NCBI GenBank assembly: GCA_946531495.1
Contig: CAMNAQ010000003.1
Span: 1 to 64,000 of the forward strand
Length of the DNA: 64,000 bases
Origin: an uncultured Lachnospiraceae bacterium
Lineage (GTDB): Bacteria > Bacillota > Clostridia > Lachnospirales > Lachnospiraceae
Reading direction: 5' to 3'
Positions 45,379-61,985 of this stretch are shown here, piece by piece. Both the position numbers and the translations under genes were made by a program. The notes under the pieces are model-generated. The model saw only the letters and a program-made list of their open reading frames with translations, was not told where the DNA came from and made no database searches. Numbering within the stretch: position 1 is the stretch's first letter; every line of letters starts with the position of its first letter.

Positions 45379-45413
45379 AGCCTTTAAAGCTTTTGATACA
45401 AGGAGATAAACAA

Positions 45414-46349
45414 ATGGTCTACACGCTTACACTTAACCCTTCGCTGGATTATGTAATGTATCCTGCATCATTTCCCAAAAGGGGAGGAACCAACAGGTCT
45501 CAGAGAGAGGAACTCCGTGCCGGAGGAAAAGGTATCAATGTTTCGGTAGTGCTCAAGAATCTCGATGTTCCCACAAGAGCTCTTGGATTTATCGCCGGAA
45601 ATACAGGTGATGAGATAGAGGGAACCCTCAGGAGCATCGGTATCCGTACCGGATTTATAATGCTTCCTTTTAAAAACGGCATGAGCCGTATCAATGTCAA
45701 AATAAGAGTTCCCTATGAGGATTCCGCAGAGCGTGGCTATGAGGAGACCGAGCTTAATGCTGCGGGGCCTGTGGTTGATGACGGAGCGGTTAACGATCTG
45801 TGCGACAGACTCGAAAGATTTACGGACGGTGATGTGATGGTGCTGGCCGGAAGCATGCCCGTGCAGGCTCCTGAGGATATGCTGGACAGGATCCTTTCAT
45901 CCGTTCCGGAGGGCGTCAGGACTGTTGTTGATATGACAGGTGACAGACTTAAGACAGCCCTTAAATACAAGCCGTTTCTTATAAAGCCTAATCTTGAGGA
46001 GCTTTCACAGGCGGCCGGAAGAGAATTAAAGGATATTGATGAAATAGTGGAGGAAGCAAGAAAGCTCCAGAATGCCGGAGCTGAAAATGTGATCGTTTCC
46101 ATGGGACCCGACGGTGCGATCCTGCTCGACAAAACAGGTGAGATCCACAGGGCAAAAGCACCTGAAGGCAAGGCACTCGGCGCTTTCGGAGCAGGAGACT
46201 CCATGACTGCGGGATTTATAAAGGGATTTTTGGATGAACGTGATTACGATTACGCCCTGAAGCTCGGAGTGGCTGCGGGAAGCGCTGCAGTGTTTGTCGG
46301 AAAACTCCCTGAGTATGAAGAGATAATGAAGGTATTCGATGAAGTATAA
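45414..46349 (+). CDS. fruK: 1-phosphofructokinase (PfkB family)
   Basis: LTLNPSLDYVMY, GGKGINVSVVLKNL, GAFGAGDSMTAGFI; start at ATG 45414. Confidence 0.85.
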   Translation: MVYTLTLNPSLDYVMYPASFPKRGGTNRSQREELRAGGKGINVSVVLKNLDVPTRALGFIAGNTGDEIEGTLRSIGIRTGFIMLPFKNGMSRINVKIRVPYEDSAERGYEETELNAAGPVVDDGAVNDLCDRLERFTDGDVMVLAGSMPVQAPEDMLDRILSSVPEGVRTVVDMTGDRLKTALKYKPFLIKPNLEELSQAAGRELKDIDEIVEEARKLQNAGAENVIVSMGPDGAILLDKTGEIHRAKAPEGKALGAFGAGDSMTAGFIKGFLDERDYDYALKLGVAAGSAAVFVGKLPEYEEIMKVFDEV

Positions 46350-48021
46350 CGGTCTGCCTGTAAATGAAGGAATAATCATCGGACGCATTCGAAAAATTTC
46401 ATCTGCACCACTGATTCCGGAGAATGATCTCCGGCCCGGTGCAGATGATGAGAGAATGCGTTTTTTTGATGCGCTTTTGGAATTTGAGAGCAGTATGAAG
46501 GCTGTGGCATCTTCAGCCTCGACAGATGAGGGAAGAGATATCATATCCGGTCAGATCATGATAGCAAGAGATCCGATGTTGTCCGATGAGGTTCTTGCTC
46601 TTATTGATTCGGGAATGACGGCTGATGCGGCATTGTCTTCTGCGTGCAGGAAATATGAGGCCATGCTTGATTCTCTTGAAGATGATCTGATATCCGAAAG
46701 GCTGGAGGATCTTCTCGAAGTAAAGAACGGTATCCTGACACTTATGGGTGGAAAACCCGAAGAAGCAGAAGGCTGAAACAGTGGCGGTGATGTCATTTTT
46801 GCAGAAAGGCTTTCTGCGGCGGAGCTGGTCGGACTCGGAAAAGCCGGTGTCAAGGCAGTTGTGATGGAGGGCGGAACAGCAACATCCCATGCTGCTGTCA
46901 TTCTGAGATCTCTCGGGATCCCTGCAGTTTTTGGAATAAGCCCGGAAAAGGATAGTATTGAAGAAGGGACATGTATCATAGTTGACGGTGCATCCGGCAT
47001 AGTGATCACAGACCCATCCGAAGAACAGATCGTTGAATACAGCCGAAAGGCAACAGCTGAAAGCGGAAGAGATCAGGATATAAATGATCATACCGGAAGA
47101 TGTATCACTCTTGATGGGACGGAGGTAAAGGTACTCAGTAACATAGGGTCTGAAAAAATACCCGAAGGGGCAAAGTATTCAGACGGTGCCGGACTTGTAA
47201 GAACGGAATTCCTGTTTTTATCCGAAGGGAAGATGCCTTCAGAAGAAGAGCAGGAGAAGGTATATAGCAGGATCGCAGATTCTTTTCCCTACAAGGAAAC
47301 GGTGATAAGAACCCTTGACATAGGCGGAGACAAAAATCTCGGGAATGACGGCGAAAATGAAAACTGTGACAATCCCGCACTCGGAATAAGGGGAGTGAGA
47401 CTTTCGCTTGATAACAGCGAAGAGTTTTCCCATCAGATAAGCGCAATACTCAGAGCTTCACATAACAGGAAGATCAGTATAATGGTTCCGATGGTGACAT
47501 GCGTAAACGAAGTGATCCGTGTAAAGAGGATCATTGAAGGCTGCAGATCTGCTCTCAGGGGAAAGGGTATTCCATGTTCCGATGAGGTCAGGCTTGGATG
47601 TATGATAGAGACTCCGGCTGCTGTTTTTAGTGCAGGAGAGCTGGCACATGAGGTCGATTTCTTTTCAATAGGTACCAATGATCTGGCCCAGTATGTAATG
47701 TGTGCGGACAGAGGCAATCCGCATATGGCAGGGTTGTGCAGCATGTATCAGCCTGCGGTCATAAGGGCCGTGAGGATGGTATGCGATAAAGCTGACGGTG
47801 CAGATATTCCCGTCACGGTATGCGGTGAGGCTGCTGCTGATGAGAAGCTTCTTCCGGTTTTTATAGGCCTTGGTGTAAGAAGTCTGAGCGTGGATGCCTC
47901 CAGAGTATCCTCCGTAAAAAACTCGATTGTTTCGCTTAAGCTCGATGATTGTAAAAAGATTGCTCTAAAGACACTGAATGCCGGAACCGCCGATGAAGTA
48001 AGAAATGTACTCGGATGCTGA
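46339..48021 (+). pseudogene. ptsI: PTS enzyme I interrupted by in-frame TGA at 46774-46776
   Basis: 46339-46776 (N-terminal/HPr-binding part) and the 46861-48021 ORF are in the same frame; sense codons NSGGDVIFAERLSAAELVGLGKAGVKAVV join them; GGTATSHAAVILRSLG phospho-His and GTNDLAQYVMCADRG motifs intact. Confidence 0.85.
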
Positions 48022-48092: not shown

Positions 48093-49175
48093 ATGAAAAG
48101 TATTTATGTCTGTCACACATATTATCATGTGTTTGTGACGATGCTGAAGGAACTTAATAAACCTGAAGATCAGCGCGGCATGGCTACCCTTGTTCTCAGT
48201 AAGATGTCCAATGATTTTGAGGATCTTAAAGGCAGAGCCGAAAAAAGCGGCGTGTTCGAAAGCGTTATTGAGTTTGATGAAAAGAGAGATACGTTTTTCC
48301 CTGAACTTGCAAAGTACAGGACCGATAAGGGAAATATCGTCCTCAATATGATAAACAGGATCATCTTCACAAAGAAATTTGCCAGACTCGAGGCTCCTTT
48401 TGTTCCCGTTGATTTCAGGGAATACGACGATATATATGTATACTGTGATATAGACCCCATAGGACTGTATCTGAATCAGAACAGGATCAGATATCATGCG
48501 ATGGAGGACGGACTGGATACACTTAAACCATGCGTGCAGGCAATTTATGACAACAGAAGTCATTTTGCACTGAAAAAATTTTTCAGTATGAATCTTAATC
48601 TGATATTCATACGTGACGGTTACAGCAAGTATTGCATCGACATGGAAGTAAACGATAAGAGCGTCATCGATGATGACTTTTATAAATACAAGGAAGTCAG
48701 CAGAAGAGCTCTTAAGGATGCACTCGGTGATAAAGAAAGAGATATCCTTGTATCAACTTTTATAAAGGATATGGACAGCTTCCGAAGATTTATGGAGGGC
48801 AGCGGAGACGACGGAATCCTTATTCTTACGGAGCCTCTCTGCACTCTTGATATAAGAGAGAAGATATTCAGGGAAATCATAGATATGTATAAGAATGAGG
48901 GAACTATATTTATCAAGCCACATCCCAGAGATACTCTTGATTATAATGAAAAGTTCGGTGATTACTGGGTCTTCGACAGAACCCTGCCGATGGAAATGTT
49001 CGGGCTGTTCAACGGGATAAAGTTTAAAAAAGTGGTCGGAGTATATACCCAGATGGGAATGATAGATTTTGCAGAGGAGAAGGTTATGCTCGGGGATGAT
49101 TTCATGGATAATTATGAAGCGCCCGAGATTCACAGAAAGGCTGAAACAGTAAAAGCCGAATTCAGGAAAGTATAA
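48093..49175 (+). CDS. GT52-like (sialyltransferase-like) glycosyltransferase
   Basis: MKSIYVCHTYYHVFVTM..., IFIKPHPRDTLDY, LPMEMF pattern. Confidence 0.65.
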   Translation: MKSIYVCHTYYHVFVTMLKELNKPEDQRGMATLVLSKMSNDFEDLKGRAEKSGVFESVIEFDEKRDTFFPELAKYRTDKGNIVLNMINRIIFTKKFARLEAPFVPVDFREYDDIYVYCDIDPIGLYLNQNRIRYHAMEDGLDTLKPCVQAIYDNRSHFALKKFFSMNLNLIFIRDGYSKYCIDMEVNDKSVIDDDFYKYKEVSRRALKDALGDKERDILVSTFIKDMDSFRRFMEGSGDDGILILTEPLCTLDIREKIFREIIDMYKNEGTIFIKPHPRDTLDYNEKFGDYWVFDRTLPMEMFGLFNGIKFKKVVGVYTQMGMIDFAEEKVMLGDDFMDNYEAPEIHRKAETVKAEFRKV

Positions 49176-57183: not shown

Positions 57184-57966
57184 ATGAATCTTATTTTTCT
57201 TGATATAGACATGACCATATGGGATGAAAGGCTTCACATCCCCGAAAGCACAAAAGATGCCATAAGACTGGCGAAAGTCATGGGAAACAAGGTGTTTATC
57301 AATACCGGAAGGTCAAGATCCAACACCAGATATGAAGCTCTTGATGAACTTGGCATGGATGGCATTGTCGCTGCATGCGGATGCCACATAGAGATAGGTT
57401 CCAATATCATCGGGCAGACGCTTCTTACACCTGAGCAGGTAAGGCTGTCCCTTGAAGTGCTTCGACGTGAGCACATGCCTGTTGTTCTTGAAGGGCCTGA
57501 ATATTGTTTTTTTGATCCTGAGGATTTTCCGGATGATCCCTTTGCCGCAACCCTTTGGGAATCACTCGGAGAAAGAGCGAGAAGACTTGATACGCTCAGT
57601 GAGACGGATCCGGTTAACAAGTTCAGTGCAGATATAACGGCTCAGACTGATTTTGATGCGGTGTGTGAGAGCCTTGGAGGATTCCTCGATACAATTAATC
57701 ATAACGGAGTGGTTGTGGAATTTGTTCCGAAAGGACATTCCAAAGCAACGGGAATGGAAATAGTAAGAAAATATTATGATGTTCCCGCAGAAAACATTTA
57801 TGCCGTCGGTGACGGGATGAATGATATGGCCATGATAAAGGCTGCAGCCCACAGTATCGCCATGGGGCAGGGAAATCCCGAACTTCTTATGGCGGCGGAA
57901 TATGTCACCGATTCTGTCTATGAAGACGGGATCTACAGGGCTTTTAAGCATTATAAGCTGATCTGA
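57184..57966 (+). CDS. Cof-type HAD-IIB hydrolase
   Basis: FLDIDMTIWDERL, NTGRSRSNT, AVGDGMNDMAMIKAAAHSIAMGQG. Confidence 0.92.
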   Translation: MNLIFLDIDMTIWDERLHIPESTKDAIRLAKVMGNKVFINTGRSRSNTRYEALDELGMDGIVAACGCHIEIGSNIIGQTLLTPEQVRLSLEVLRREHMPVVLEGPEYCFFDPEDFPDDPFAATLWESLGERARRLDTLSETDPVNKFSADITAQTDFDAVCESLGGFLDTINHNGVVVEFVPKGHSKATGMEIVRKYYDVPAENIYAVGDGMNDMAMIKAAAHSIAMGQGNPELLMAAEYVTDSVYEDGIYRAFKHYKLI

Positions 57967-58068: not shown

Positions 58069-58734
58069 ATGAACTTTAATATTCATGCATCTATGATGTG
58101 CGCCAACTTCGGAAATCTTGAGAAAGAGGTCCGTGATCTTGAGGAGGCGGGAGTTGATTATTTCCATATAGATATCATGGATGGAAGATATGTGCCTAAT
58201 TTTGCCATGAGTCTGTATGACATGAAGTTTATAGCTGAGGCTACAAAAAAGCCTCTTGACGTACATCTCATGCTGGAACATCCCAATAACAATATAGAAA
58301 TGTTCCTGTCACATCTTCGCCCCGGTGATATCGTATATATTCATCCCGAAGCAGAATATCATCCCTCGACAACACTTCAGAAGATCATCAATGCGGGTAT
58401 AACCCCGGGTATCGCGATCAATCCCGGAACCAGCGTTGAGAGCGTTCTGGAGCTTCTGAGGATAGTCGATAAGGTTCTTGTTATGAGCGTCAATCCCGGA
58501 AATGCGGGTCAGATGTTTCTTCCTTACGTAGGCACCAAGATAAGCACTCTCCTTGATCTTCAGAAATCAATGCATTTTGATCTCATCTGGGACGGAGCAT
58601 GCAGTGCCGAGAGGATAGAAAAATATGCTCCCATGGGAATGAGCGGATTTGTACTCGGAACCACACTTTTATTTGGCAAGGAAAAAGGATATGCCGAGAC
58701 CATAAGGGATATCCGGAATATGGAGTTTAAATGA
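58069..58734 (+). CDS. ribulose-phosphate 3-epimerase family protein (divergent, AlsE-like)
   Basis: YFHIDIMDGRYVPNFAMS, DVHLM, MSVNPGNAGQMF, WDGACS. Confidence 0.88.
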   Translation: MNFNIHASMMCANFGNLEKEVRDLEEAGVDYFHIDIMDGRYVPNFAMSLYDMKFIAEATKKPLDVHLMLEHPNNNIEMFLSHLRPGDIVYIHPEAEYHPSTTLQKIINAGITPGIAINPGTSVESVLELLRIVDKVLVMSVNPGNAGQMFLPYVGTKISTLLDLQKSMHFDLIWDGACSAERIEKYAPMGMSGFVLGTTLLFGKEKGYAETIRDIRNMEFK

Positions 58735-59408
58735 CAGCAGCTGTTCTATTGTCCGGAGGAACCGGCAACCGAATGGGAAGCGATATCCCCAAGCAGTATC
58801 TGGATGCGGGCGGAAAGCCCGTCATCTCATACTGTATTGAGGCTTTTGAGGCTTCGCCCGTAATTGACCGCATCGTGGTAGTGGCGGCGGAGCAATACAG
58901 AGACCTTATACGGTCTCTTTTTTCTGATGAGGATAAGTTTGCAGGATTTGCCGATCCTGGTAAAAACAGACAATTATCAATATTGTCCGGACTTAATTTA
59001 CTTAAAGACATTCTGAAAGATGACGATGGTGTCATAGTTCATGACGCTGCAAGACCTCTTGTTTCCGGAGAGCTTATAAGTGGGATCGCAGAGGCACTGA
59101 AAAGAAGCGACGCTGTTTTACCTGTTCTTCCGCTTAAGGATACCATTTATGAAGTTAAGAACGGCAAGGTGACCGCAAATCTTGATCGTGACACTCTTGG
59201 CGCAGGACAGGCTCCCGAGGGCTTCAGATTCGGACCGTATCTTAAGGTAAATGAAGCGCTCCTGCCTGACAGGATAATGGATATAAGCGGGTCAATGCAG
59301 CCTGCGGTGATGGCCGGGATGGATATTGCCTGTATCCCGGGTGATGAAAGAAACTTTAAGATAACGACTCCCGCAGACCTTGAAAGATTCAGGGAGATCA
59401 TAGGATAA
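58731..59408 (+). CDS. IspD/TarI-family cytidylyltransferase
   Basis: LLSGGTGNRMGSDIPKQYL, VHDAARPLVS, GDERNFKITTPADL. Confidence 0.88.
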   Translation: MTAAVLLSGGTGNRMGSDIPKQYLDAGGKPVISYCIEAFEASPVIDRIVVVAAEQYRDLIRSLFSDEDKFAGFADPGKNRQLSILSGLNLLKDILKDDDGVIVHDAARPLVSGELISGIAEALKRSDAVLPVLPLKDTIYEVKNGKVTANLDRDTLGAGQAPEGFRFGPYLKVNEALLPDRIMDISGSMQPAVMAGMDIACIPGDERNFKITTPADLERFREIIG

Positions 59409-59412
59409 AGCT

Positions 59413-60525
59413 ATGAAAGCATATGTATTGAACGGAATAGGTGATATAGCTCTCAGAGATGCCAAAACCCCTGAACTTGACGGGAGTGGCATAAAGGGAC
59501 ATAACGGGCAGACATCCGTAGCTGATGATGACTGCGTAATAGTAAGGGTAAAAGCTGCAGGTATATGCGGGTCCGATATCCCAAGGATATATAAAACAGG
59601 CGCATATCATCATCCGCTGATACCCGGACATGAATTCAGCGGAGAGGTCGCGGATGCCGGGAGGAATGTTAAGGATTTCGGCGCAGGTGCAAGAGTCGGA
59701 ATTTTCCCTCTGATACCCTGCCAAAAATGCAGGCCCTGCATTTCGGGTCATTATGAGATGTGCAGGAATTACAATTATCTTGGATCAAGGTGCGACGGAG
59801 GCTTTGCCGAATATGTAAAGGTTCCGGCTGGCAGCCTTATCGCACTTCCGGATAATGTTTCCTTTGAGCAGGCTGCAATGCTTGAACCGATGTCTGTTGC
59901 AATGCATGCCATAAGGCAGTGCGGTATGGACACCTGTCCTTCGGATGAAAAGAAAAATATCCCGATAGCGATATGCGGAATGGGAACTATAGGACTTCTG
60001 ACGCTCATGCATTTGAAGGGTATGGGATATGAGAATATCTTCTGTATAGGAAATAAACCCTTTCAGCGTGAAACAGTATCGAACCTTGGTATAGATGATC
60101 TTCATTATCTTGATTCAAAAGAAAGCGACGTGCCGGAAAAGATAAAGGAACTGACAGACGGTGAAGGCGCAGCATATTTTTTTGAATGTGTCGGAAGGAA
60201 TGAATCCGTATCGCTTGCGCTTAACTGCCTTGGGCCTTCTGGAAGGCTTCAGCTTGTGGGGAATCCGGCTTCCGATATGAGTTTTGCCAAGGATCTTTAC
60301 TGGAAGATACTAAGGCAGCAGTTTATTGTGACCGGTACATGGAACTCTTCATACAGGCATTCGAAGGATGATGACTGGCACATGGTGGTATCTGCTCTTG
60401 AAAACGGAAGGATCGTTCCTCAAAGCTTCATCACGCATCTGCTCGGATTTGAAGATCTGGGAAAAGGATTTGAGATGATGCGGGATAAAACAGAGAATTA
60501 CATTAAGGTAATGTGCCATATATAA
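59413..60525 (+). CDS. zinc-dependent polyol(-phosphate) dehydrogenase (GatD/TarJ-like)
   Basis: GICGSDIPRIYKTGAYHHPLIPGHEFSGEV, CQKCRPCISGHYEMC, GSRCDGGFAEYV. Confidence 0.88.
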   Translation: MKAYVLNGIGDIALRDAKTPELDGSGIKGHNGQTSVADDDCVIVRVKAAGICGSDIPRIYKTGAYHHPLIPGHEFSGEVADAGRNVKDFGAGARVGIFPLIPCQKCRPCISGHYEMCRNYNYLGSRCDGGFAEYVKVPAGSLIALPDNVSFEQAAMLEPMSVAMHAIRQCGMDTCPSDEKKNIPIAICGMGTIGLLTLMHLKGMGYENIFCIGNKPFQRETVSNLGIDDLHYLDSKESDVPEKIKELTDGEGAAYFFECVGRNESVSLALNCLGPSGRLQLVGNPASDMSFAKDLYWKILRQQFIVTGTWNSSYRHSKDDDWHMVVSALENGRIVPQSFITHLLGFEDLGKGFEMMRDKTENYIKVMCHI

Positions 60526-60560: not shown

Positions 60561-61952
60561 ATGATAAACGGATATGAAGCATCAAAAGGAATAGGGATAG
60601 GAATTGCCGTGATACTCCAAAGCAGTGATGTATCAGGCTCTGACAGTATGCCCGGGATCACTTCGGATATCTTATCGGGCGTAAAACCCGGATCGGTCAT
60701 CGTTGCCCGCGTTCTTACTCCGGCTGCCATTTCCATGCTGAGAGATATAAAGCCTGCGGCCATAGTCTGCGAGACCGGCGGTCTTACCTCTCATTCGGCG
60801 CTTGTTGCCAAATCCTTTGGAATACCTGCGGTATACGGTGCCATCGGAGCAACGGACATCATACATGAAGGCGATACCGTGATAGTTGACGGTATACGGG
60901 GATTTGTATACGAAAGACCCGATAATTCGCTCGTTGAGGAATTCACCGCCAGAAAAAGAGAATTTATAAAGGAACGTACTGACCTTGAACGCTTTCGCGG
61001 GATGAAGACGAAGATGGCTGACGGAAGTTCGGCTGAGATCCTGTGTAATGTGGGTGATGTGGTCGGAGTGATGAATGCCATTGATAACGGTGCGGAAGGG
61101 ATAGGGCTTTACAGGACCGAGAACTATTTTTCGGGAATGAAAAATGCTCCCACCGAAGATGAACAGACCGCCAATTATTCCAGGGTTGCAAGGGCAATGG
61201 AAGGATTTGAAGTGGTCATCAGGACACTTGATATCGGTGGCGACAAAAGGCTCCCGTTCATGCCTCAGGAGCATGAGGAGAATCCTTTTCTGGGCTTTAG
61301 AGCCATAAGATACAGCCTTGGAAATAAGCCGTTTTTTTCGACACAGTTAAGAGCAATCCTCAGATCCGCTGCTTCCGGAAATGTGTCCGTACTGATCCCC
61401 ATGGTCACATGCGTTGAGGAGATCCGTGAGCTTAGGGCTCTTATTCAGGAGCTCTGCTCGGATATGAGGGATGAGGGTGCGGTCTTTAATGATGATATGA
61501 AGATCGGAGTGATGGTCGAGACTCCCGCTGCTGCGGAGATTTCCGACCTTTTGGCGGGAGAGTGCGATTTTTTCTCGATCGGTACCAATGACCTTGTACA
61601 GTATACGATGTGTGCAGACAGGGGTGACGGCAGGCTTTCCTACCTTCAGTCCGTGACACAGCCGCCTGTGCTCAGGCTGATAGAGCGTACGATCAAAAAC
61701 GGCCTGTCTGCGGGTATTCCGGTTTCCGTCTGCGGAGAAGCCGCTTCAGATCCGGAGATCATACCGGTCCTTGCAGGCTTCGGATGCAGGCGTTTCAGCG
61801 TCGATCCTCTTTCTGTCCCCGAGGTCAGGAGAACTCTTTCGGAATGGACTTTGAAGGAGGCAGAGGAGCTTGCCATGGAAATAATGAAGATGCCCTCGGA
61901 TCATGAGATAAGACAGCGCTTAAAAAGTGCTTTGAAACATGGAAAGGCATAA
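60561..61952 (+). CDS. PTS enzyme I-like PEP-utilizing protein lacking the HPr-binding domain
   Basis: GGLTSHSALVAKS phospho-His, GIGLYRTENYF, RTLDIGGDK, GTNDLVQYTMCADRG, VCGEAASD; only about 30 aa separate the N-terminal strand from the phospho-His domain. Confidence 0.88.
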   Translation: MINGYEASKGIGIGIAVILQSSDVSGSDSMPGITSDILSGVKPGSVIVARVLTPAAISMLRDIKPAAIVCETGGLTSHSALVAKSFGIPAVYGAIGATDIIHEGDTVIVDGIRGFVYERPDNSLVEEFTARKREFIKERTDLERFRGMKTKMADGSSAEILCNVGDVVGVMNAIDNGAEGIGLYRTENYFSGMKNAPTEDEQTANYSRVARAMEGFEVVIRTLDIGGDKRLPFMPQEHEENPFLGFRAIRYSLGNKPFFSTQLRAILRSAASGNVSVLIPMVTCVEEIRELRALIQELCSDMRDEGAVFNDDMKIGVMVETPAAAEISDLLAGECDFFSIGTNDLVQYTMCADRGDGRLSYLQSVTQPPVLRLIERTIKNGLSAGIPVSVCGEAASDPEIIPVLAGFGCRRFSVDPLSVPEVRRTLSEWTLKEAEELAMEIMKMPSDHEIRQRLKSALKHGKA

Positions 61953-61955
61953 GAA

Positions 61956-61985
61956 AAGCGGGATCGGATGATCCCGCTCTTTATT
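61956..61985. terminator. bidirectional terminator
   Basis: agcgggatc-ggat-gatcccgctctttatta between convergent genes. Confidence 0.75.

What the first reader, a model, noticed from the sequence alone, without database searches (positions are those of the whole stretch)
60561..61952. Enzyme I paralog missing the HPr-binding domain, at the end of a polyol-phosphate gene cluster
The 463-aa protein keeps the phospho-His loop (GGLTSHSALVAKS), PEP-site and Cys motifs but has only ~30 aa where canonical EI has the ~120-aa HPr-binding helical insert. It should be able to autophosphorylate from PEP yet not dock HPr in the usual way. It sits directly after the GatD/TarJ-like gene. Inference: a PEP-dependent phosphotransfer protein with a different partner or small-molecule acceptor. 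The other EI in the window is interrupted, making the relationship intriguing.
Basis: partly seen in the sequence, partly recalled or inferred. Interest (0 to 1): 0.66.

Follow-up and report, generated by a model that had tools for sequence, protein, structure and literature searches.

The report
Enzyme I naturally lacking HPr-docking domain
A group of rumen-type bacteria keeps, under strong selection, a shortened copy of the first enzyme of the sugar phosphotransferase system that can in principle still charge itself with phosphate from PEP but has cleanly lost the domain used to pass that phosphate to its normal partner HPr, so it probably serves a different, unknown partner.

Summary
Window 60561-61952 encodes a 463-aa Enzyme I (EI) paralogue ("EIs"). 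It keeps EI strand β1, the phospho-His domain and the PEP-binding/dimer domain, with every catalytic residue invariant. E. coli residues ~22-145 (EINα, the HPr-docking domain) are replaced by a ~14-aa disordered linker. No HPr-binding domain is hidden nearby.

It is not an artefact. Fourteen of 31 genomes held for this Lachnospiraceae genus carry it (13 complete, 459-465 aa), including the isolate Lachnospiraceae bacterium AC2028. Its dN/dS is ~0.05, lower than its full-length paralogue's in five of six pairs. One further short EI appeared, in another genus.

The polyol link is not supported: the RPE-IspD-ADH cassette is absent beside EIs in 7 genomes and present without EIs in one. Stable neighbours are a HAD phosphatase upstream and, in 12 of 14, an EamA transporter downstream. 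The window's other EI (46339-48021) is interrupted by one in-frame TGA but intact in relatives. Tested EIIC and EIIA families are absent from the genus; HPr and HPr kinase remain.

An engineered E. coli EI of this architecture binds PEP ~12-fold tighter. Best reading: a tight PEP-binding, autophosphorylating, HPr-independent regulatory EI with unknown partner. New variant of a known kind.

The parts
60561..61952 (+). EIs: HPr-docking-domain-less Enzyme I paralogue, 463 aa
   Evidence: ORF; Pfam PF00391 + PF02896 without PF05524; AF2 model pLDDT 90.3, pTM 0.87; orthologues in 14 of 31 genus genomes
60561..60620 (+). residues 1-20: beta-hairpin equivalent to EI strand beta1 of the phospho-His domain; SKGIGIG invariant
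   Evidence: alignment A1, model strands E5-8, E11-19
60621..60662 (+). residues 21-34: short disordered linker where EI has the ~124-residue HPr-docking helical domain (E. coli 22-145)
   Evidence: pLDDT < 50 at residues 22-32; alignment
60684..60902 (+). phospho-His (mobile) domain, residues 42-114; active His78 codon at 60792-60794
   Evidence: Pfam PF00391 E 6e-20; His invariant
60984..61844 (+). PEP-binding/dimerisation domain, residues 142-428
   Evidence: Pfam PF02896 E 5e-95; Foldseek to EIC crystal structures, TMt 0.96-0.97
61957..61978 (+). terminator-like stem-loop just after EIs (9 pairs, T-rich tail)
   Evidence: 8 found against 4.6 expected in shuffles
57184..57966 (+). Cof-type HAD hydrolase; in 7 relatives it is the gene directly upstream of EIs (overlap of 4 nt to 29 nt gap)
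   Evidence: Pfam PF08282; synteny
58069..58734 (+). ribulose-phosphate 3-epimerase-like gene; member of the dissociable cassette
   Evidence: PF00834; presence/absence
58731..59408 (+). IspD/TarI-like cytidylyltransferase; member of the dissociable cassette
   Evidence: PF01128; ispD and ribitol-5-P models hit below their cut-offs
59413..60525 (+). GatD/TarJ-like zinc alcohol dehydrogenase; member of the dissociable cassette
   Evidence: PF08240 + PF00107; best NCBIfam galactitol-1-P dehydrogenase, 206 bits, below cut-off 550
46339..48021 (+). EI2: the other EI, with an HPr-docking domain (46405-46758); interrupted here by an in-frame TGA at 46774-46776
   Evidence: sequence; PF05524 69.7 bits on residues 1-145; intact 559-573 aa in 14 relatives
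45393..46349 (+). PfkB-family kinase directly upstream of EI2; a PfkB gene precedes EI in the EI2 genomes and in most of the other genus genomes whose EI contig was read
   Evidence: synteny

Best explanation
EIs is a natural Enzyme I without its HPr-docking subdomain (EINalpha). Likely working: it homodimerises through the PEP-binding domain, binds Mg-PEP, swings its His78 domain onto the PEP site and becomes His-phosphorylated, releasing pyruvate. Without EINalpha it pays no hinge penalty and so should bind PEP more tightly and favour the closed state. It cannot hold HPr on EINalpha, so its phosphoryl group (or its PEP-dependent closed state) is read by another protein; it acts as a PEP/pyruvate-responsive regulatory branch beside the ordinary EI2-HPr pair. 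Shown here: architecture, intact active site, purifying selection, separation from the polyol cassette, absence of the tested PTS permease families in the genus. Inferred: autophosphorylation, tight PEP binding, a non-HPr partner. The most economical partner candidates are the products of the coupled genes (HAD phosphatase, EamA transporter), but nothing here identifies the acceptor.
For: Catalytic residues invariant in 13 complete orthologues and in 44 EIs overall. EIs dN/dS 0.044-0.071, against 0.056-0.160 for EI2 in the same genome pairs. One origin (100/100 support) and 14 of 31 genus genomes, including isolate AC2028. AF2 model pLDDT 90, best fit to the closed, phosphorylated E. coli EI 2hwg (rmsd 2.2 over 424 columns, TMq 0.86), poorer to open forms (rmsd 9-12); a full-length genus EI modelled as control fits no single state well (rmsd 6.6 or more). 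Engineered E. coli EI(1-21,146-575), which has this architecture, binds PEP with KD 0.037 against 0.43 for full-length (both H189A; micromolar per the main text, PMC5537066). The genus has HPr with its active His and HPr kinase but no detected PTS_EIIC, EIIA_2 or EIIA-man. Stable HAD-EIs neighbourhood, EamA downstream in 12 of 14.
Against: No biochemical data were found for any of these proteins; acceptor unknown. AF2 conformation may reflect training data. EIs occurs only in genomes that also have EI2, which fits a role through EI2 just as well. Thr168, conserved in 90% of canonical EIs sampled, is replaced in EIs (and in EI2), so rates may differ. Other EII families (for example PF02302, PF00358, PF03609) were not searched.
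Confidence: 0.55

Rival explanations
1. EIs works through EI2: mixed EIs-EI2 dimers form via the PEP-binding domains, and EIs either supplies a better PEP-charging half or damps HPr phosphorylation.
For: EIs is found only in genomes of the EI2 lineage (14 of 16). EI dimerises through loops 333-366 and 453-477 (PMC5537066), present in both proteins.
Against: EI2's dimer loop 333-366 has drifted from the canonical sequence (identity to canonical EIs 0.46, against 0.65 for EIs), which looks more like separation than partnership. EI2 occurs without EIs in G010. In the window's own genome EI2 is interrupted.
Confidence: 0.2
2. EIs still phosphorylates HPr, by direct contact with the phospho-His domain or with a separately supplied docking domain (in the window, the 145-aa EI2 N-terminal fragment).
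For: An HPr with an intact His15 region is present. The TGA in EI2 falls just after the docking domain, leaving it as a possible free-standing piece.
Against: HPr docking is assigned to the missing EINalpha subdomain (PMC5537066). Relatives have an intact EI2 and would not need this. The fragment arrangement exists in one assembly only.
Confidence: 0.1
3. EIs phosphorylates a small molecule or enzyme of the adjacent polyol-phosphate (RPE-IspD-ADH) cassette.
For: Adjacent and co-directional in the window and in six other genomes.
Against: Seven genomes carry EIs without the cassette next to it, one carries the cassette without EIs, and the sister pair G026/G028 differs in cassette but not in EIs. 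EIs has no recognisable acceptor-substrate domain for small molecules.
Confidence: 0.05
4. A decaying, non-functional remnant of a duplicated ptsI.
For: One domain is missing; the genus lacks the tested PTS permease families.
Against: dN/dS about 0.05 over deep divergence, all catalytic residues invariant, clean domain excision with an open frame in all 13 complete orthologues.
Confidence: 0.03

Closest known systems
Enzyme I of the PTS (PtsI; TIGR01417; PF05524+PF00391+PF02896)
   Same: Phospho-His domain, PEP-binding/dimer domain, all catalytic residues; E. coli EI aligns over about 415 residues without gaps, 38% identity in the structural match
   Different: The HPr-docking EINalpha subdomain (E. 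coli 22-145) is absent, replaced by a ~14-aa linker; no PF05524 match
Engineered E. coli EI with EINalpha removed, EI(1-21,146-575) (PMC5537066)
   Same: Essentially the same domain architecture and nearly the same excision points
   Different: That is a laboratory construct in an active-site-mutant (H189A) background used for thermodynamics; this is natural and conserved
EI-Ntr (PtsP) and the permease-less PTS, e.g. Brucella (PMC2937029)
   Same: PTS chain without detected permeases, presumably regulatory
   Different: EI-Ntr keeps an HPr/NPr-docking domain and adds a GAF domain; EIs has no GAF and no docking domain
PEP synthase and pyruvate phosphate dikinase
   Same: Homologous mobile His domain and PEP-binding domain
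   Different: No nucleotide-binding domain is present here
Short EI of G269 (another Lachnospiraceae genus; L086:7508-8875, 455 aa)
   Same: Same loss of EINalpha with intact catalytic residues
   Different: About 36% identical, placed among canonical EIs in a quick tree (long branch), sits between cdaR and tig; that genome has a full PTS (12 EIIC, 8 HPr hits), so probably an independent loss

Membership tests
PTS Enzyme I (PtsI) | PEP-binding C-terminal domain PF02896 | tested here: met
   E 5e-95
PTS Enzyme I (PtsI) | Mobile phospho-His domain PF00391 with active His (TSH) | tested here: met
   E 6e-20, H78 = E. coli H189, invariant
PTS Enzyme I (PtsI) | PEP-site residues R296, R332, R358, E431, N454, D455, R465, C502 | tested here: met
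   all present and invariant in EIs, EI2, canonical EIs and the G269 protein
PTS Enzyme I (PtsI) | HPr-docking helical subdomain (PF05524/EINalpha) | tested here: not met
   no PF05524 hit; none encoded nearby in any frame; present in EI2
PTS Enzyme I (PtsI) | Score over the TIGR01417 curated cut-off | tested here: met
   414.6 bits against 341.7, but only profile positions 148-562 of 565 matched; an automatic name would therefore mislead
PTS Enzyme I (PtsI) | Phosphoryl transfer from PEP to HPr | not testable with these tools
   needs a 32P assay
EI-Ntr (PtsP) | N-terminal GAF domain | tested here: not met
   no further domain; the protein starts at EI strand beta1
PEP synthase / PPDK | Nucleotide-binding (ATP-grasp) domain | tested here: not met
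   only PF00391 and PF02896 over threshold; 463 aa
Component of the polyol-phosphate cassette | Consistent co-occurrence with RPE-IspD-ADH | tested here: not met
   7 genomes with EIs and no cassette beside it, 1 with the cassette and no EIs

The most novel reading that the evidence does not exclude
EIs heads a PEP-driven histidine phosphorelay that does not use HPr and feeds a new class of acceptor or sensor, that is, a second, HPr-independent output for Enzyme I in bacteria that appear to have lost PTS sugar uptake.
Probability: 0.35. Interest if true: 0.82.

Novelty: new variant of a known kind. Interest (0 to 1): 0.57.

Why it matters
Enzyme I is generally described as acting through HPr. 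A conserved natural EI without the HPr dock, under strong selection in genomes where the tested PTS permease families were not found, implies another use of PEP-dependent His phosphorylation. Because the same architecture was made artificially in E. coli and shown to bind PEP much more tightly, the natural protein offers a direct, testable case of an EI turned into a PEP sensor or an alternative phosphodonor. Standard annotation would call it plain 'ptsI' and hide this.

Tried and rejected
Upstream start restoring the HPr domain: rejected (six extra codons only). HPr domain hidden in another frame or nearby gene: rejected. Fusion partner suggested by 784-aa open frames in G018 and G004: they contain no start codon before the normal ATG, so no fusion. 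Interrupted EI2 as a conserved split gene: rejected, intact in 14 relatives. EIs as a recent duplicate of EI2: not favoured; a careful tree puts EIs outside (lineage-B EIs + EI2), 98/89, while a quick tree left this unresolved. G272 as a third short EI: rejected, a frameshifted full EI. First genome-contig scan gave nothing. The phage- and plasmid-record hits listed do not align to the first ~20 residues of EIs and look like ordinary EIs; several 'phage' records look like bacterial DNA. Literature searches found no description of a natural EI lacking the docking domain; the library is open-access only.

Full report
WHAT IS THERE. The ORF at 60561-61952 (+) encodes 463 aa. Pfam finds the mobile phospho-His domain (42-114) and the PEP-binding domain (142-428) but no PEP-utilisers_N. 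NCBIfam TIGR01417 scores above its cut-off but matches only from profile position 148. The best solved relatives are full-length Enzymes I (EI), aligned without gaps from about residue 37. In those alignments window residue r equals E. coli EI r+111. The active His (78 = 189) and the PEP-site residues (R296, R332, R358, E431, N454, D455, R465, C502 in E. coli numbering) are all present and invariant in the orthologues and in a broad EI alignment. Residues 1-20 match the first EI strand; residues 21-34 stand in for about 124 residues that form EINalpha, the HPr-docking subdomain. A profile of that subdomain finds no copy near this gene in any frame. The open frame extends only six codons upstream.

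IT IS REAL AND CONSERVED. The window lies in a 2.13-Mb, 75%-complete draft genome. Of 31 genomes held for its genus, 14 carry the short EI ('EIs'); 13 have it complete, 459-465 aa, orthologues 55-70% identical to the window protein. G027 matches the public isolate Lachnospiraceae bacterium AC2028, so this is not a binning artefact. EIs dN/dS is 0.044-0.071; in the same genome pairs the full-length paralogue EI2 gives 0.056-0.160, higher in five of six pairs and about equal in the sixth. EIs is monophyletic with full support; a careful tree places it outside (most other genus EIs + EI2), 98/89, so it is probably not a recent copy of EI2.

HOW RARE. N-terminal profiles of EIs were run on 397 family, 392 order and 399 phylum genomes (overlapping samples, match lists cut at roughly 150 rows, so absence is not exhaustive). 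Beyond the genus one clear further case appeared: G269, another genus, 455 aa, catalytic residues intact, between cdaR and tig. Another family member, G272, has cdaA-cdaR-HPr-EI in the corresponding place. G269 has a full PTS (12 EIIC hits, 8 HPr hits) and groups with other EIs in the quick tree on a long branch, so an independent loss is likely but not proven. Among 80 EI loci from named genomes only AC2028 was a genuine short form (L147, the other one under 520 aa, starts at the usual place and keeps about 139 aa before the His domain).

CONTEXT. Gene order is TrkA-TrkH-PfkB-EI2-...-DUF6020-HAD-[RPE-IspD-ADH]-EIs-[EamA], then a GGDEF gene on the other strand and a gene whose start matches the one at the window's right end. 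The bracketed polyol cassette is absent beside EIs in seven genomes (EIs then follows the HAD gene with an overlap of 4 nt to a gap of 29 nt), and in G010 it is present while EIs is absent. The sister pair G026/G028 differs in the cassette but not in EIs. An EamA-family transporter follows EIs in 12 of 14; the window and G023 lack it. So the polyol association in the window is not a stable property of the gene.

THE OTHER EI. EI2 (46339-48021) holds the only HPr-docking domain in the window (46405-46758). An in-frame TGA at 46774-46776 interrupts it; the frame downstream is otherwise open, and 14 relatives have it intact, with purifying selection on all three of its domains. A PfkB gene precedes EI in the EI2 genomes and in most of the other genus genomes whose EI contig was read. 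Whether the TGA is a true mutation or an assembly error cannot be told here.

THE PTS OF THE GENUS. Thirteen genus genomes give no hit to PTS_EIIC or EIIA_2, and nine give none to EIIA-man; controls and G269 do. HPr with its His motif, a Crh-like HPr without it, and HPr kinase are present. The chain therefore looks regulatory rather than for sugar uptake, as described for Brucella (abstract of PMC2937029). Other EII families were not searched.

MECHANISM. AlphaFold2 gives a confident model (pLDDT 90.3, pTM 0.87) with residues 22-32 disordered. Among the EI states it fits the closed, phosphorylated E. coli EI best by rmsd (2hwg, 2.2) and open forms poorly; a full-length genus EI modelled as control fits no single state well. 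This is suggestive only. In E. coli, an EI made without EINalpha (residues 1-21 and 146-575, H189A) bound PEP with KD 0.037 against 0.43 for the full H189A protein (micromolar per the main text, the unit in the table header being garbled); the authors attribute the difference to the hinge penalty (PMC5537066). The natural protein has essentially that architecture. I infer tight PEP binding, autophosphorylation at His78 and no ordinary HPr docking, with a partner still to be found. The rival that it acts by pairing with EI2 remains open: EIs occurs only in the EI2 lineage, though EI2's main dimer loop has drifted from the canonical sequence.

VERDICT. Observation confirmed; interpretation partly supported; a new variant of a known kind. 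Activity, acceptor and physiological role are untested.

Noticed in passing
46774-46776: Single in-frame TGA splits EI2 just after its HPr-docking domain; the rest of the frame is intact and all relatives have no stop there. Real nonsense change or assembly error unresolved.
   Followed up: partly
L086:7508-8875 (G269): A second, probably independent, short EI in another Lachnospiraceae genus, between cdaR and tig; in G272 the corresponding place holds cdaA-cdaR-HPr-EI.
   Followed up: partly
genus-wide: Thirteen genus genomes lack PTS_EIIC and EIIA_2 (nine of nine tested lack EIIA-man) yet mostly keep HPr, a Crh-like HPr, HPr kinase and an EI; G006 has no detectable EI at all.
   Followed up: partly
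58069-60525: RPE-IspD-ADH cassette (possible CDP-polyol synthesis) comes and goes between HAD and EIs in close relatives.
   Followed up: partly
EIs residue 57 (E. coli Thr168): Thr168, conserved in 90% of canonical EIs sampled, is replaced in EIs, EI2 and the G269 short EI.
   Followed up: no
1389-2999: Product looks like a bacterial serpin (read by eye, not searched).
   Followed up: no
48093-49175: Glycosyltransferase-52/polysialyltransferase-like gene in a likely surface-polymer region with DUF6020 and other membrane proteins.
   Followed up: no
phage collection: Several records labelled as phage carry ordinary EI genes and look like bacterial DNA.
   Followed up: no
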